Source of the DNA: Lysobacter sp.
Lineage (GTDB): Bacteria; Pseudomonadota; Gammaproteobacteria; Xanthomonadales; Xanthomonadaceae
DNA: 64,000 nucleotides
Assembly (NCBI GenBank): GCA_013141175.1
Contig: JABFRN010000001.1
Span: 3,430,001-3,494,000 of the forward strand
Reading direction: 5' to 3'
Positions 53,541-59,935 of the stretch are shown one piece after another. The position numbers were made by a program, and so were the translations under genes. The notes under the pieces are model-generated. The model ran no database searches. It saw only the letters and a list, made by a program, of their open reading frames with translations, and was not told where the DNA came from. How positions within the stretch are numbered: the stretch's first letter is position 1; each line of letters begins with the position of its first letter.

Positions 53541-55388
53541 TCAAGCGGGCGCCACGATCCCGGCATCGGCGACCAGCGTCGATCCATCGCGGTTGCGACG
53601 GCTATCGCTGCCATCGAGGAACTGCAGGCACGCCAGTTCTTCGTACAGCCCGCCCTGCGCCATGAGGCTCTGATGCGTGCCTTCGGCGACGATACGGCCG
53701 CGATCCATCACCACGATGCGATCTGCCTTGAGGACGGTGGCCAGACGATGCGCGATCACCAGCGTCGTGCGTCCGTGCATCAACGATTCCAATGCGCGCT
53801 GCACCGCATGTTCGCTATGGGCATCGAGTGCGCTGGTCGCTTCGTCCAATAAAAGTATCGGTGCGTTCTTGAGCAAGGCGCGCGCGATCGCGATGCGCTG
53901 TTGCTGACCGCCCGATAGCCGCGAGCCGCGCTCACCCAGATCGGTATCCAGGCCTTGCGGCAACGCGGCGAGGAAATCGGCGGCTTGCGCCGCCCGCACC
54001 GCCGCCTCGAACGCAGCCTCATCGGCCGCGAGATTGCCGTAGCGGATGTTGTCGCGCGCCGAAACCGCGAACAGCGTCGGCTGCTGCGGCACAAGCGCCA
54101 CCGCACCGCGCAATTCAGCTGGATCCAAGCGCGTCAACGGCACGCCGTCCACGCGGATGAGGCCTGCGCCGGGATCGTGGAATCGCAGCAACAACGAGAA
54201 CACCGTGCTCTTGCCGGCGCCGGAAGGGCCGACCAACGCCACGGTTTCGCCAGGACGCACTCGTAGACTGAAGCGTTCAAGCGATGGCGTGTCCTGGCGC
54301 TGCGGGTAATGGAAAGTCACATCTTCGAAAACGATGTCGCCGCGAACCGGCTGCGGCAATCGTTCCGGGTTCGTTGGCGCGACGATCGCGGCGCGTTGCG
54401 CCAGCAATTCGGTGATTCGGCTCATGCCGCCGCTGGCCCTCTGAACGTCGTTCCAGACTTCAGCCAAGCCGCTCACCGCATCGCCACCCAGCAACGCGTA
54501 CATCACGAATTGCGTCAACGTCCCCACGCTCATGCGTCCGGCCGCGACATCGTGCGCGCCGAGCCAAAGCACGAACAGAATCGCACCGCTGCCGAGAACG
54601 CCCGCTACCACCGTGAGCGCGGCCTGCGCCTGGATACGACGGCGCGCGGCCGATAGCGCGGCTTCCAACATGGCGGCGAAACGGCCGTGTTCATGATCCT
54701 CGCGCACATGCGCCTGTACCGTGCGTACGGCAGACAGTGTTTCATTGGCGAGCGCGTTGGCATCAGCGATGCGGTCCTGACCTGTGCGCGCAAGACCGCG
54801 CAAGCGACGCCCGCCCAGGATGCTGGGCAATACCGCCAGCGGGATTGCAAGCAACGCATAAAACGCCAATTGCGCGTTGGTCGCGAACAGCATCGCGATC
54901 GCACCGATCGTCATCACGGTACTGCGCAGCAGCCCGGAGATCGCAAAGGTCAACAAGAAACGCAGGAATTCCACATCGGACGTCAGTCGCGACACCAGCT
55001 CGCCGCTGCGGTTGCGGTCGTGGAAAGCGGCATCCAGCGTGAGCAGTCGCACGTAGAGGCGCTCGCGCAAGCTGGCGACCACGCGTTCGCCAAGCAGCGC
55101 CGCGAAGATATAGCGAGCGGTGCCGGCCAACGCCAACACCAGAGTGATGCCCAACAAGGCGAGGAAATCGCGATCGATCCGGGACGGGTCGCCTTGCGCG
55201 AAGCCACCATCGATCAACTGCGCCGAAGCCACCGGCAAGGTCAGCGTCGCGATGGTCGCCACGGCGAGCGAGATCAACCAGATCGCGAACAGCCAAGGAT
55301 GTCGATGGACCAGTGGCCACAGCGCGCGTAGATCGCTTGTGGCGGTGGGCGTCGCCTGCTGCGTCGTGATGGTGTCGTCGTTGGTCAT
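53541..55388 (-). CDS. ABC exporter, fused permease and ATPase (MsbA/LmrA type)
   Basis: A 615-residue half-transporter. The N-terminal domain has about six helices (from LFAIWLISLAVATIATLTLPV); the ATPase has Walker A GPSGAGKST, a Q-loop in VPQQPTLF, the signature LSGGQQQR, Walker B ILLLDEATSAL and an H-loop His (VIAHRLA). It carries no C39 peptidase domain, so it does not cleave a leader itself. It is divergent from the peptide precursors, 407 bases away, and could export the mature product; a general lipid or drug exporter is the alternative. AGGA precedes the ATG at 55388. Confidence 0.9.
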   Translation of the reverse strand: MTNDDTITTQQATPTATSDLRALWPLVHRHPWLFAIWLISLAVATIATLTLPVASAQLIDGGFAQGDPSRIDRDFLALLGITLVLALAGTARYIFAALLGERVVASLRERLYVRLLTLDAAFHDRNRSGELVSRLTSDVEFLRFLLTFAISGLLRSTVMTIGAIAMLFATNAQLAFYALLAIPLAVLPSILGGRRLRGLARTGQDRIADANALANETLSAVRTVQAHVREDHEHGRFAAMLEAALSAARRRIQAQAALTVVAGVLGSGAILFVLWLGAHDVAAGRMSVGTLTQFVMYALLGGDAVSGLAEVWNDVQRASGGMSRITELLAQRAAIVAPTNPERLPQPVRGDIVFEDVTFHYPQRQDTPSLERFSLRVRPGETVALVGPSGAGKSTVFSLLLRFHDPGAGLIRVDGVPLTRLDPAELRGAVALVPQQPTLFAVSARDNIRYGNLAADEAAFEAAVRAAQAADFLAALPQGLDTDLGERGSRLSGGQQQRIAIARALLKNAPILLLDEATSALDAHSEHAVQRALESLMHGRTTLVIAHRLATVLKADRIVVMDRGRIVAEGTHQSLMAQGGLYEELACLQFLDGSDSRRNRDGSTLVADAGIVAPA

Positions 55389-55795: not shown

Positions 55796-55984
55796 ATGCA
55801 GAACAATCAGGACGTTACGCTTTCCCAATTGGCCTCGTTGCAGAAGGTCGACACGAAGGCCGATCACAAGATCTTGCAGGCCCGTGTTGGCGTGGCTGCG
55901 GCAGGCTGCGCCGACCCGACCAACCAGGCCTTGCATCGCGTCCATCGATGCTGGCGCGGTTCCGATAGGAGGTATTGGCGCTGA
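55796..55984 (+). CDS. RiPP precursor peptide 1 (divergent copy)
   Basis: A 62-residue peptide. The leader has SQLASLQK and TKADHK, followed by RVGVAAAGC at the leader/core boundary, then the tail ADPTNQALHRVHRCWRGSD and RRYWR. It is clearly paralogous to the two peptides downstream: the same length, the LA motif, the GC boundary and an aromatic end. Here the final Cys of the others is Arg (CGC in place of TGC) and an internal Cys (HRCW) is present instead. AAGGA lies about 9 bases before the ATG. The boundary and processing are inferred. Confidence 0.8.
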   Translation: MQNNQDVTLSQLASLQKVDTKADHKILQARVGVAAAGCADPTNQALHRVHRCWRGSDRRYWR

Positions 55985-56265
55985 AAACACGCAACGGGCC
56001 CCGACGCGGGCCTATCGCATTCACGTTAACGCTGCGTCGACGCGTGCTATGCGAATGTGAGGTTGCTCCCTTCCCTAGGGAGCCTCAGAACAATTCGGAG
56101 GCTCCGCGCGCCAGGGATGGCGCGCTCGCGGATCGATCGCGCAAGTGATCGATCCGGCGGGAGCAGACTCGGGCTTGGCCTGAGTCTGCGACGTCTGAAT
56201 CACTCCAGGATGAAATATTCAGACCTTGCCTAGCAACACCCAAAAAACCAACAAGGAGTGACTTC
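55985..56265. other. Spacer with three hairpins between precursors 1 and 2
   Basis: No gene is seen. Hairpins: GGCCC/GGGCC (55997-56012), a possible weak terminator; CGGATCGATC/GATCGATCCG (56129-56156), perfect 10-bp arms and 8-base loop; and GCAGACTCGGGC-TTG-GCCTGAGTCTGC (56163-56189), 12-bp arms with one G-U pair. They may stabilise or attenuate the transcript. AAGGAG for precursor 2 lies at 56253-56258. Confidence 0.55.
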
Positions 56266-56463
56266 ATGCAGAACAAGAAGACGTTCGCTTTCCAACTCGC
56301 CTCGACCCAGAAGACCGAGGCGAAGGCCGATCAGAAGCAGTGGCAGGTGCGTGATGGCGTCGCGGTCGCCGGTTGCACAGACCCGACCCGTCAAGGCGAT
56401 TTCCGTGAATCCTACGATATCTGGGGCACCTATCGCGGTCGCGACAAGGGCTACTGGTGCTGA
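56266..56463 (+). CDS. RiPP precursor peptide 2
   Basis: A 65-residue peptide. The leader KKTFAFQLASTQKTEAKADQ is rich in Lys and Gln. RDGVAVAGC is the boundary, followed by a tail TDPTRQGDFRESYDIWG and TYRGRDKGYWC. The tail has four Asp, one Glu, several Thr, a Ser and a Lys, all possible partners for ester or amide bonds made by an ATP-grasp ligase. It has exactly two Cys, one at the boundary and one at the C-terminus. A good AAGGAG ribosome site gives confidence in the start. Confidence 0.88.
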   Translation: MQNKKTFAFQLASTQKTEAKADQKQWQVRDGVAVAGCTDPTRQGDFRESYDIWGTYRGRDKGYWC

Positions 56464-56487
56464 CTCGGCCGGCTTGAAGTTCCGGCG

Positions 56488-56508
56488 CCGCCGTCGCGAA
56501 AACGGCGG
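56488..56508. other. Hairpin between precursors 2 and 3
   Basis: CCGCCGT (56488-56494), loop CGCGAAA, ACGGCGG (56502-56508). There is no T-run, so it is more likely an mRNA-stabilising or processing element than a terminator. Confidence 0.45.
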
Positions 56509-56572
56509 TCTCGAACGAACCATCGTTCACCACATCGATTCGACCCATAACACCATGAACATGGAGAAAGAC

Positions 56573-56755
56573 ATGCAAACGGACAACAAAACCAAGTCGT
56601 TCGCGTTCAAATTGGCTGCGGATACGAAACAGAAGACCGATAAGCAGCAGGCCTGGCAAATGCGCGACGGCGTTGCGGTCGCCGGTTGCAGCGGCCCCGA
56701 CGCGCGCGCCGACAGGGCCTTCCCGTATCGCCGGGATGGCGGCATTTATTGTTGA
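56573..56755 (+). CDS. RiPP precursor peptide 3
   Basis: A 60-residue peptide. The leader has KTKSFAFKLAADTKQKTDKQ; the boundary RDGVAVAGC is identical to precursor 2. The tail SGPDARADRAFPYRRDGGIYC is shorter, with three Asp, one Ser and the final Cys, and no Thr or Lys. GGAG lies 7 bases before the ATG; two earlier in-frame ATGs (56555 and 56561) could add up to six residues. Shared leader and differing tails are the mark of a precursor family processed by common enzymes. Confidence 0.87.
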   Translation: MQTDNKTKSFAFKLAADTKQKTDKQQAWQMRDGVAVAGCSGPDARADRAFPYRRDGGIYC

Positions 56756-56795: not shown

Positions 56796-56826
56796 CGGGC
56801 CCCGCATCGCGGGGCCCGTGTTTTTT
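56796..56826 (+). terminator. Strong terminator between precursors and processing genes
   Basis: A perfect 10-bp stem CGGGCCCCGC (56796-56805) and GCGGGGCCCG (56809-56818) with an ATC loop, followed by TGTTTTTT. It ends the precursor transcript 40 bases past precursor 3, before the ATP-grasp gene. Partial read-through would give far more precursor than enzyme mRNA. Confidence 0.93.
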
Positions 56827-56882: not shown

Positions 56883-57893
56883 ATGAATAAACATATCCTG
56901 GTCATCACCCACAGCGGCGATCTGCATGCCGATCTGGTCGTTGAACGATTGCTCGCGCGCGACGCGGGCGTCTTCCGTCTCAACCTGGACCAGTTTCCAG
57001 CGCATTACCAATTGGATGTCCGCCAGATCGATGGCGTCTCGATCGGTGTCATGCGCCATCTGCCTACGAAAGCCGTGGTATCGATGGCCGACATCGGCAG
57101 TGTATGGACGCGCAAGTCCGGCGATTTCATGTTCTTGAGCGATGGCGAACTCGGCCCGCAAGAGCGCGCTTATGCGATCGAGGAGACCAAGCACATCCTC
57201 ACTAGCCTGTTGCTGACGATCGACGGCTATTGGATGAATCATCCGATGGCGTCGCAGGCCGCGATGTGGAAGGGCGAGCAACTGCGCCGCGCGGCGCGAC
57301 TTGGATTCCGCGTGCCGCTCTCGCTGGTGACCAACGATGGCGACGCCGTGCGCCGCTTCCGCAGCGCGGTCGGCGGTGAGATCATTTTCAAACCGCTGTC
57401 GTCGCCGTCGTTGGGCGCGGACGACGTCGATGTCGCCGATCGCATCGTGCCCAATCTCGCAACGACCATCATCACCGATGAGCACGAGGACATGCTCGAC
57501 GCCCTGCGCGAGCTGCCTGGTTTTTTTCAGCAATATATCCCCAAACAGCACGAGCTTCGGGTGACGGTGATCGACGGCCACGTGTTTGCGGCACGCATCG
57601 ACTCCCAGGGCGACGAACGCACACGCACCGACTATCGCGATTTTTCGGCGGAAATCGATTACAGAGCGGAACGGCTGCCGCCGGAGATCGAACGCCGCTG
57701 TCGCGACTTCATCCACAGCTATGGCTTGAAGTTCGGCGCCATCGACTTGATCTTCACGCCCGGAGGCGAGTATGTGTTCCTCGAGAACAATCCTGCCGGG
57801 CAATTCCTCTTCGTAGAGCAATTGGTGCCCGAGCTGCGCATGCTGGATGCGGTGACCGATTGCCTGGTCGACGGCGCGCAGCGCAAAGGCTGA
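56883..57893 (+). CDS. ATP-grasp RiPP ligase (MvdC/MvdD-like)
   Basis: A 336-residue ATP-grasp enzyme. The start ILVITHSGDLHADLVVERL, the phrase VWTRKSGDF and YWMNHPMASQAAMWKGEQLRRA are like those of the microviridin ligases. Nucleotide- and metal-binding residues include Lys170 (IIFKPLSSP), Asp288 (GAIDLIF), Glu301 and Asn303 (LENNPAGQ). These enzymes phosphorylate Asp or Glu side chains and form esters or amides with Ser, Thr or Lys. Here it should act on the three peptides upstream. The ATG at 56883 has no clear ribosome site, consistent with low expression after the terminator. Confidence 0.9.
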   Translation: MNKHILVITHSGDLHADLVVERLLARDAGVFRLNLDQFPAHYQLDVRQIDGVSIGVMRHLPTKAVVSMADIGSVWTRKSGDFMFLSDGELGPQERAYAIEETKHILTSLLLTIDGYWMNHPMASQAAMWKGEQLRRAARLGFRVPLSLVTNDGDAVRRFRSAVGGEIIFKPLSSPSLGADDVDVADRIVPNLATTIITDEHEDMLDALRELPGFFQQYIPKQHELRVTVIDGHVFAARIDSQGDERTRTDYRDFSAEIDYRAERLPPEIERRCRDFIHSYGLKFGAIDLIFTPGGEYVFLENNPAGQFLFVEQLVPELRMLDAVTDCLVDGAQRKG

Positions 57894-57897
57894 AACC

Positions 57898-58764
57898 ATG
57901 TCGGCATTCCCGCAACTGCAACTGTTCGAGCGCGATGGCCAGAGTCGCGCGCTGATTTTCGGCGCGACCCATTTGGACGCCGAACTCCTCCCCATGCTGT
58001 ACGACACGCTGCGCAACATCGGCCACTCGCCTCGCCTCGATGTGATCGTGTATTGCCGCGGCGGTGAGGTCGCGGTGGCGCGGCGGATCGGCCTCCTGCT
58101 GCACCGGTTCACCGATCGTCTGCGTTTGATCGTGCCGCACCACTGCCAATCGGCGGGCACGGTGATGGCGCTCGCCGCGCATGAGATCGTGACTGGGCCG
58201 ATGGCGATGTTCTCGCCCATCGATCCGCACCTTCACGGTAGCGATGCCCAAGGCGAGGTGACCGCGATGTCGGCGCAGGACATCCGCATGTTTCCGAAAA
58301 TGGCGCAGGATTGGTTCGGTCTGGATGAATCCGAAGCGCGTGAACGTGCTCTGCCCCTGCTCTGCGACAGCATCGCACCGGCAACGCTTGCTGCGTTTTA
58401 TCGCAGCACGCTCGCTGTACGTCAGATCGGCGAGGAGTTGCTTTGTTTGCATATGTCGCAAACGCCTGAAGCGCAACGCACCGCTGTCGTTGAGACATTG
58501 CTGTTCGGTTATCACGCGCACGATCACACTTTGACCGGAGAGGACCTGGCCTCGATCGGGCTGAACGTGCGCAACGATCCAACCCTGACCGATGCGGCGT
58601 GGGAGATCGCGCGCGAATTGCGCACACGCATGGGCCCGGAAACGCGGAAAACGAATGCGCGCGGCTGGTGCGATGCGCTCATCGCCACCCGCAACGGCGG
58701 CTGGGTACGCACGCGTCAACAGGACATGTTGCCCGGCGACTGGGACGTGTTCGAGGTCGCGTGA
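57898..58764 (+). CDS. ClpP-fold serine protease (SDH/SppA-like), candidate leader peptidase
   Basis: A 288-residue protein of the ClpP/crotonase clan, closest in pattern to serine dehydrogenase proteinases (SDH). CRGGEVAVARRIGLLLHRF contains the oxyanion GG pair; HHCQSAGTVMALAAHEIVTG has the nucleophile Ser85; MAMFSPIDPHLHG is the typical GPIDPQ-like region. No signal peptide is seen. It starts 4 bases after the ATP-grasp gene and overlaps the next gene, so it belongs to the locus. Removing the precursor leader is the likely job (inference); the usual RiPP proteases are of other families. Confidence 0.85.
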   Translation: MSAFPQLQLFERDGQSRALIFGATHLDAELLPMLYDTLRNIGHSPRLDVIVYCRGGEVAVARRIGLLLHRFTDRLRLIVPHHCQSAGTVMALAAHEIVTGPMAMFSPIDPHLHGSDAQGEVTAMSAQDIRMFPKMAQDWFGLDESEARERALPLLCDSIAPATLAAFYRSTLAVRQIGEELLCLHMSQTPEAQRTAVVETLLFGYHAHDHTLTGEDLASIGLNVRNDPTLTDAAWEIARELRTRMGPETRKTNARGWCDALIATRNGGWVRTRQQDMLPGDWDVFEVA

Positions 58765-59318
58765 TGAGCGTCGAATCCTATCTTGCGGAATGCTGTCGAT
58801 GGTACGTGGTGATCGCGCTGCTGGCCGCAGCCGTCGGCAAGAGCATGGGCTTCGGGAGTTTCCGCAACAGTCTGGACGAATCGTTCCCGCCCTTGAAGGC
58901 CGGTGGAAGCCTGCTCGCCGCAGCTTCTATCCTGGTCGGCGAGTGGTCGGCGGCGCTGCTGATGCTTGCTGGCGGCGTGTTGTCGCGCGCGGGCTTGATG
59001 CTGGCATTCGGTTTGTTCGTGTTCCTCACCGCGGTCGTCGTGCTGGTGCTGGCGAAAGGCCTGTCAGTGCGCTGCAACTGTTTCGGCGCGTCGCAGCAAC
59101 GCATTTCCGTTGTCGACCTGATACGCAATCTGCTGTTCATCACGGCTGCAGGCTTCGGTTTGTACGGCGCTTCCGCCACCGGTATCGCGAGCGCTTCTGG
59201 CGGTCTCGATGCGCCCGCCTCCGTGGCGATCGTCATGGTGGCCATGATGTTCTTCCTTCTTTCGATTCATCTGCGCGAGATCGCAGGTCTGCTGCGTATC
59301 CGTGGCGAGGATTTGTGA
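58764..59318 (+). CDS. MauE-like (DoxX-related) redox membrane protein
   Basis: A 184-residue inner-membrane protein with about four to five helices. VRCNCFGASQQ has the Cys104-x-Cys106-Phe-Gly signature of MauE-type proteins, which work with MauD-type redoxins in forming disulfides in periplasmic proteins. Its start overlaps the protease stop by one base (TGATG). Next to a CxxC redoxin and two-Cys precursors, it suggests a dedicated thiol-redox step. Confidence 0.85.
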   Translation: MSVESYLAECCRWYVVIALLAAAVGKSMGFGSFRNSLDESFPPLKAGGSLLAAASILVGEWSAALLMLAGGVLSRAGLMLAFGLFVFLTAVVVLVLAKGLSVRCNCFGASQQRISVVDLIRNLLFITAAGFGLYGASATGIASASGGLDAPASVAIVMVAMMFFLLSIHLREIAGLLRIRGEDL

Positions 59319-59320
59319 CG

Positions 59321-59935
59321 ATGTTCGACAGCGTCTTCGTTCCGCTCGATTCCACCTTGCTCAGCTTGCTGGTGGTCGCATTGGCCGTGCTGGTCGCGAT
59401 CAACTTGTTCCTTAGCCTGCGCCTGACTACGCTGGTCGGCGCACTGGCTCATGCGCGATTGCCGGACACCGTGCCGATCGGTGTCGCCTTGCCGGACTTT
59501 CGGGCGCGGATGCTCGATGATGGCCGCCGTGTCGATGCGGATACTTTGCTGGCCGAACAGGCGACGGTACTGGTGTTTCTGAGCCCCGGCTGCAAATCGT
59601 GCCTGGAGCGTTTGCCGGAACTGCGGCGCATGCAGCCGCTGATGGAAGAGACTGGCGTGGCTCTGTGGGTGATCAGTAGTGGCCGCGAGCGACGTCTGCG
59701 CGCTTATTTCGAATCCACCGGCTTGCTATCGCGGGCGCTGCGCGTGAGCGACAGTGACATGCGCATGCTCAACCCGAAATACTCGGCACCGTTCTATATC
59801 TTCGTCGATGCGACGCGGGTCGTGCAGGCCAGCGACCTGATCGGCGATGCGAACTGGTTGAGTTTCCGTGACCAGATCGGCGATGCGGAATCGATTGATG
59901 CGGATGTTACCGGTACGAATTTATCGGCGACTTGA
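59321..59935 (+). CDS. Membrane-anchored thioredoxin-like protein (MauD/TlpA type)
   Basis: A 204-residue protein with an N-terminal membrane helix (about residues 12-32) and a redoxin domain facing the periplasm. The active site is Cys91-Lys-Ser-Cys94 in VLVFLSPGCKSCLERLP; IGVALPDFRA is the usual AhpC/TlpA start, and SAPFYIFVD gives the cis-Pro region. It follows the MauE-like gene by 2 bases and is the last gene of the locus. It could oxidise, reduce or isomerise disulfides in the product. Confidence 0.9.
   Translation: MFDSVFVPLDSTLLSLLVVALAVLVAINLFLSLRLTTLVGALAHARLPDTVPIGVALPDFRARMLDDGRRVDADTLLAEQATVLVFLSPGCKSCLERLPELRRMQPLMEETGVALWVISSGRERRLRAYFESTGLLSRALRVSDSDMRMLNPKYSAPFYIFVDATRVVQASDLIGDANWLSFRDQIGDAESIDADVTGTNLSAT

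What the first reader, a model, noticed from the sequence alone, without database searches (positions are those of the whole stretch)
55796..56755. Precursor family with fixed boundary Cys and a movable second Cys
Precursors 2 and 3 each have exactly two Cys, one in VAGC and one at the very C-terminus (YWC, IYC). Precursor 1 keeps the boundary Cys (AAGC) but its last residue is Arg (codon CGC, one base from TGC), with the second Cys moved inside as HRCW. Each peptide therefore still has two Cys. A selective need for a Cys pair fits a disulfide ring around the tail, next to redox genes. Precursor 3 lacks Thr and Lys in the tail, which limits any ester or amide pattern to a single Ser donor.
Basis: partly seen in the sequence, partly recalled or inferred. 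Interest (0 to 1): 0.75.

Follow-up and report, generated by a model that had tools for sequence, protein, structure and literature searches.

The report
Graspetide precursors with two fixed cysteines
These are genes for small ring-shaped peptides in which two cysteines, one at each end of the predicted product, are kept without exception across several bacterial phyla and travel with their own disulfide-making genes; the 'moved' cysteine in the first copy is most likely a sign that this copy is decaying.

Summary
In detail: all three precursors have exactly two Cys, and P1 ends in Arg instead of Cys. Relatives separate two claims. (1) The Cys pair is real and under selection. Every one of 54 leader-bearing precursors near related ATP-grasp ligases (Lysobacteraceae, Oxalobacteraceae, Shewanella, Caulobacteraceae, Myxococcota, Bacteroidota) fits leader-AGC[S/T]...D....C-stop. 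Cys begins the predicted core, Ser/Thr follows, and Asp is always five residues before a Cys that is always the last residue. (2) The second Cys does not move. P1 is the only exception; it also lost the leader motif, the Ser/Thr and other conserved residues, while its positional orthologues are normal, so P1 looks like a decaying copy. The operon continues with a ClpP-like SDH protease, MauE and a TlpA/MauD-like CxxC protein, plus a dedicated second copy of an ABC exporter. These are absent from four congeners that lack the ligase, and MauE-TlpA are fused in two relatives. Best model: one Ser/Thr2-Asp(-5) macrolactone inside a Cys1-Cys(last) disulfide, a doubly stapled hairpin. Neither bond is shown chemically. 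It is a graspetide-type RiPP variant that I did not find described in the held literature.

The parts
53541..55388 (-). ABC exporter (MsbA-related, no C39 peptidase domain), divergent from the precursor operon; a second, cluster-dedicated copy
   Evidence: PF00664+PF00005, TIGR02204 772 bits; genus members with the cluster have two copies, four without it have one; relatives carry an ABC exporter right after TlpA or divergent
55796..55984 (+). P1, degenerate precursor (lost leader FAF, Trp, Asp of DG, Ser/Thr2, terminal Cys; internal Cys at HRCW)
56266..56463 (+). P2, intact precursor; predicted core CTDPTRQGDFRESYDIWGTYRGRDKGYWC
56573..56755 (+). P3, intact precursor; predicted core CSGPDARADRAFPYRRDGGIYC (single donor Ser2)
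56796..56818 (+). terminator-like hairpin with T run between precursors and ligase (possible attenuator)
   Evidence: consensus scan only; 6 found against 4.0 expected in the region
56883..57893 (+). ATP-grasp peptide ligase (graspetide synthetase)
   Evidence: PF21068 above cutoff, TIGR04187/04184/04185 by E-value but below their cutoffs; nearest solved CdnC 7mgv E 8e-55; clade of 31 ligases, support 100/100
57898..58764 (+). ClpP-like SDH-type serine protease; predicted leader peptidase
   Evidence: PF01972 above cutoff; S85 33/33, D109 32/33, H208 31/32 conserved; ClpP/SppA fold in PDB search
58764..59318 (+). MauE-family membrane protein, C-x-C-F-G
   Evidence: PF07291 E 3e-19; both Cys 26/26
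59321..59935 (+). TlpA/MauD-like thiol oxidoreductase, N-terminal hydrophobic segment, CKSC
   Evidence: PF00578 above cutoff, MauD E 4e-5; CxxC 26/26

Best explanation
The window holds a graspetide-type RiPP operon whose precursors carry two fixed Cys. Proposed path: the ATP-grasp ligase binds the F-A-F-K-L-A leader and joins Ser/Thr at core position 2 to the Asp five residues before the end (one macrolactone). The ClpP-like SDH protease cuts the leader, probably after ...AVAG, leaving Cys as the first residue. The C39-less ABC exporter moves the peptide to the periplasm. The membrane pair MauE + TlpA-like protein oxidises Cys1 and the C-terminal Cys to a disulfide (MauE as electron outlet, the CxxC protein as thiol oxidase). 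Product: a 19-34 residue hairpin stapled at its base by two neighbouring links, ester inside and disulfide outside, with a variable loop. P1 is a decaying paralogue. Shown here: gene content, invariance of the four residues, conservation of catalytic residues, co-occurrence. Inferred: both cross-links, the cleavage site, the order of steps, the roles of protease, exporter, MauE and TlpA, and what the product does.
For: Precursors: 54/54 in a leader-only scan fit C[ST]...D....C-stop. In 5 of 30 divergent cores Ser/Thr2 is the only Ser/Thr/Lys donor, and in a Shewanella core (CTLAPAGNGHAPRYSDTGMYC) Asp(-5) is the only acidic side chain, so the ester pair follows by elimination if the ligase acts as its relatives do. 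Redox pair: MauE CxCFG 26/26 and TlpA CxxC 26/26; at the locus in 24 of 31 clade members; two more end at a contig edge; of the other five, four genomes carry the pair elsewhere. Among 11 genomes of the genus, the SDH protease and a second ABC copy are in 7/7 with the ligase and 0/4 without; MauE+TlpA in 6/7 and 0/4, the miss being an 82%-complete genome. MauE and TlpA are one fused protein in Pyxidicoccus and Rugamonas rivuli. MauE has been proposed to act in disulfide formation in methylamine dehydrogenase (PMC7794033). The ligase clade is one strongly supported group spread over three phyla. P1 decay: changed at 4 of 13 columns that are at least 90% conserved, plus Ala for Ser/Thr2, where no other sequence departs at more than 2; pN/pS to its orthologues 0.40-0.43 against 0.15-0.31 in P1-P1, P2 and P3 orthologue pairs.
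Against: No chemistry: no mass or thiol data. Two invariant Cys would also fit metal binding, an intermolecular disulfide, or another thiol chemistry. MauE/TlpA function is inferred from family. The ABC and protease roles are inferred from position and domain. pN/pS of P1 is below 1, so its decay is recent or partial, and a changed function cannot be excluded. AlphaFold gave no usable fold for the precursor (pLDDT 55). Relatives are linked by descent and transfer, so counts are not independent.
Confidence: 0.68

Rival explanations
1. One reading: the Cys pair is conserved but the second Cys may sit anywhere, so P1 is a functional variant with a smaller disulfide ring.
For: P1 has an intact reading frame, a plausible ribosome-binding site and exactly two Cys; pN/pS below 1.
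Against: 54/54 other precursors end in Cys; P1 orthologues in two relatives are canonical; P1 also lost the leader motif, Trp, the Asp of DG and Ser/Thr2.
Confidence: 0.1
2. The two Cys bind a metal ion or act as a redox thiol pair in the mature peptide, with MauE/TlpA keeping them in the right state (reducing or oxidising).
For: Two invariant Cys and a thiol-redox pair fit this as well; TlpA-like proteins can act as reductases (general knowledge).
Against: No other conserved metal ligand such as His in the cores.
Confidence: 0.13
3. The ATP-grasp uses Cys as nucleophile and makes an Asp-Cys thioester; with a freed N-terminal Cys it shifts S-to-N to a macrolactam.
For: Graspetide synthetases accept substituted nucleophiles and form thioesters, and an S-N acyl shift has been shown for a thioester-linked ThfA (PMC12291112); Cys is predicted at position 1.
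Against: Ser/Thr2 is invariant too and would have no role; does not explain MauE/TlpA or the C-terminal Cys.
Confidence: 0.06
4. V-A-G-C is a lipobox and the boundary Cys is lipidated.
For: The four residues match a lipobox by eye.
Against: The leader is hydrophilic and charged with no hydrophobic signal core; it has a conserved FAFKLA motif; an SDH protease and an ABC exporter are present.
Confidence: 0.02

Closest known systems
Graspetides (omega-ester/omega-amide RiPPs; microviridin, plesiocin, fuscimiditide)
   Same: MvdD-like ATP-grasp ligase next to small leader-core precursors with Ser/Thr donors and Asp acceptors; nearest solved ligases are CdnC and other graspetide ATP-grasp enzymes.
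   Different: One universal donor/acceptor pair instead of several, flanked by two invariant Cys; SDH protease + MauE + TlpA instead of a C39 peptidase transporter or methyltransferase; leader motif FAFKLA rather than PFFARFL.
Hairpin-type graspetides (plesiocin topology, ring within ring)
   Same: Donors on the N-terminal side, acceptor on the C-terminal side, nested rings (predicted).
   Different: The outer ring would be a disulfide instead of an ester.
MauE/MauD maturation pair of methylamine dehydrogenase
   Same: MauE-family membrane protein next to a MauD/TlpA-like CxxC protein.
   Different: The substrate would be a small RiPP; no methylamine dehydrogenase genes in the operon.
Stryphnines, sponge knottins with a Ser-Glu ester (PMC13418204)
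   Same: Disulfides and a side-chain ester in one peptide.
   Different: Found in a sponge, knottin fold, no ATP-grasp gene known for it; unrelated.

Membership tests
Graspetides | MvdD/MvdC-type ATP-grasp ligase beside precursor genes | tested here: met
   PF21068 54.5 bits against cutoff 27; TIGR04187 E 2e-68 though below its cutoff; precursors adjacent in all clade loci with upstream sequence
Graspetides | conserved leader motif | tested here: met
   F-x-F of FAFKLA in 52/52 aligned precursors; a motif of its own, not PFFARFL
Graspetides | conserved Ser/Thr/Lys donor and Asp/Glu acceptor in the core | tested here: met
   Ser/Thr2 and Asp(-5) in every intact precursor; P1 lacks Ser/Thr2
Graspetides | side-chain ester or amide in the product | not testable with these tools
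   needs mass spectrometry
Graspetides with C39 peptidase-transporter (PCAT) | C39 domain on the ABC transporter | tested here: not met
   only ABC_membrane and ABC_tran domains of note
SDH-type Clp-fold proteases | Ser-Asp-His catalytic residues in a ClpP fold | tested here: met
   S85 33/33, D109 32/33, H208 31/32; ClpP/SppA hits E about 1e-5 to 1e-4 with model pLDDT 85
MauE/MauD disulfide pair | MauE domain with Cys pair plus CxxC thioredoxin-like partner | tested here: met
   PF07291 69.9 bits; CxCFG and CxxC 26/26
MauE/MauD disulfide pair | forms a disulfide in a partner substrate | not testable with these tools
   inferred only

The most novel reading that the evidence does not exclude
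A trans-phylum graspetide subclass in which a dedicated MauE/TlpA membrane pair installs a terminal Cys-Cys disulfide outside a single ester, after leader removal by a ClpP-like SDH protease: a first graspetide with an enzymatic disulfide and a new kind of RiPP leader peptidase.
Probability: 0.45. Interest if true: 0.75.

Novelty: new variant of a known kind. Interest (0 to 1): 0.58.

Why it matters
If true, it adds a defined disulfide-forming module and a ClpP-like leader protease to graspetide biosynthesis, and gives a simple, strictly invariant core rule (C[ST]...D....C) for a doubly stapled hairpin with a freely varying loop. That rule makes the ring pattern predictable from sequence, which is often not possible for graspetides, and the scaffold would suit loop engineering.

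Tried and rejected
Movable Cys as a functional variant: rejected on P1's orthologues and its many other losses. Chance conservation: rejected with a leader-only scan that did not ask for Cys. Luteimonas ligase as a pseudogene (one TGA reported): the open frame ends at that TGA and the match runs past it. AlphaFold on the precursor alignment: no usable fold. Prior description: the held literature gave no graspetide with a native disulfide, MauE or SDH protease, but the Ramesh 2021 survey and a graspetide review are not held, and the Lee 2020 survey and the supplements of Makarova 2022 were not read, so the group may already carry a number there. A phylum-wide sample found no further member among 397 other genomes: the system is rare. 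Lipobox reading rejected for lack of a signal-peptide core.

Full report
Observation. P3's core has a single Ser and no Thr or Lys.

Surroundings. Downstream on the same strand lie an ATP-grasp ligase of the MvdD type (56883-57893), a ClpP-like SDH serine protease (57898-58764), a MauE-family membrane protein (58764-59318) and a TlpA/MauD-like protein with CKSC (59321-59935); an ABC exporter without C39 domain (53541-55388) is divergent. A terminator-like hairpin lies between P3 and the ligase, compatible with more precursor than enzyme transcript, though the scan finds nearly as many such sites by chance.

Relatives. Six other genomes of the genus have the ligase at 56-82% identity, and one Luteimonas genome (L043/L062) at 53%. 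A scan of named genomes found 34 loci, in Lysobacter and other Lysobacteraceae, Luteimonas, Rugamonas, Duganella, Massilia, Undibacterium, Shewanella, Phenylobacterium, Brevundimonas, Pyxidicoccus, Flavobacteriaceae and Cytophagales; three of the 34 (L074, L076, L077) are distant. In a tree, 31 of the ligases form one clade with 100/100 support and a long stem, apart from the other ATP-grasp enzymes of the same genomes.

The Cys rule. I collected the precursors with leader and boundary motifs and then again with the leader motif alone, so that Cys was not a condition. All 54 sequences of the second scan end in Cys and fit C[ST]...D....C-stop. In the 52 aligned ones, Ala-Gly-Cys at the boundary, Asp(-5) and the terminal Cys are invariant and position 2 is always Ser or Thr. 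Core length varies from 19 to 34 residues, so the frame is fixed and the loop is not. Some Bacteroidota precursors add a third Cys.

Which link. Known graspetide synthetases join Ser/Thr/Lys to Asp/Glu (PMC13097080). Ser/Thr2 and Asp(-5) are the only such pair present in all. In five of 30 divergent cores Ser/Thr2 is the only donor, and in one Shewanella core Asp(-5) is the only acidic side chain. A single Ser/Thr2-Asp(-5) ester follows by elimination, if the ligase acts like its relatives. The Cys pair then flanks the same base: Cys1 beside Ser/Thr2, the terminal Cys five residues after Asp.

Redox and processing genes. SDH residues S85, D109 and H208, MauE CxCFG and TlpA CxxC are conserved. 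MauE and TlpA accompany the ligase in 24 of 31 clade loci. Two others end at contig edges. Of the remaining five, four belong to genomes with the pair elsewhere: two Oxalobacteraceae strains and Lysobacter Bin_5_1 have a second, complete cluster, and in the SH_71_25 genome (G004) SDH protease, MauE, TlpA and an ABC exporter sit together away from the ligase. The fifth (SJ66, G006) is an 82%-complete assembly. In the genus, the SDH protease and a second ABC copy occur in 7/7 genomes with the ligase and 0/4 without, and MauE+TlpA in 6/7 and 0/4. The genomes are few and related, so this is supportive, not a clean test. In Pyxidicoccus and Rugamonas rivuli MauE and TlpA are one protein. Since MauE has been proposed to take part in disulfide formation (PMC7794033), a periplasmic disulfide on the exported peptide is the simplest reading. 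The protease model has a ClpP/SppA-like fold.

P1. The first gene after the exporter in two relatives is a normal precursor ending in DKGYWC. P1 matches them but has changed at 4 of 13 columns that are at least 90% conserved, has Ala for Ser/Thr2, and has lost residues inside the core; no other sequence departs at more than two such columns. pN/pS to its orthologues is 0.40-0.43, against 0.15-0.31 for the other orthologue pairs. The inner TGC aligns with Trp TGG or Arg CGT in the orthologues, so it can arise by one or two changes. P1 is best read as a recently decaying copy. A changed function is possible but has no support.

Standing. It belongs with the graspetides by every defining feature that could be tested, while the ester itself is untested. 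It departs in the invariant Cys pair, the single donor/acceptor pair, the SDH protease, the MauE/TlpA pair and the C39-less exporter. I found no description in the held literature, but the main group surveys were not readable here, so novelty of the group is provisional. What the peptide does is unknown; the first graspetides to be characterised are protease inhibitors (PMC8939145), and a fixed base with a variable loop would fit such a role, but this is a guess.

Noticed in passing
L078 (G004:C32) and L079 (G005:C182): SDH protease-MauE-TlpA sets away from the ligase locus, in L078 with an ABC exporter as well: maturation genes apparently supplied in trans.
   Followed up: partly
L051:9817-10869 and L061:9640-10824: MauE and TlpA-like domains fused in one protein, in Pyxidicoccus and Rugamonas rivuli.
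   Followed up: yes
window 57898-58764, residue C83: An invariant Cys two residues before the catalytic Ser (C-x-S, 33/33) in the SDH protease family of these clusters; possible redox control of the protease.
   Followed up: no
L053:7761-7937, L054:7758-7934, L072:5456-5632: Bacteroidota precursors with a third Cys inside the core.
   Followed up: no
G000:C1 830544, 665392 and 883402 (L018, L026, L030): Three further, distant peptide-ligase-like ATP-grasp genes in the same genome; MauE and TlpA-like matches in that genome occur only at the window locus.
   Followed up: partly
window 56796-56818: GC-rich hairpin plus T run between precursors and ligase, possible attenuator.
   Followed up: no
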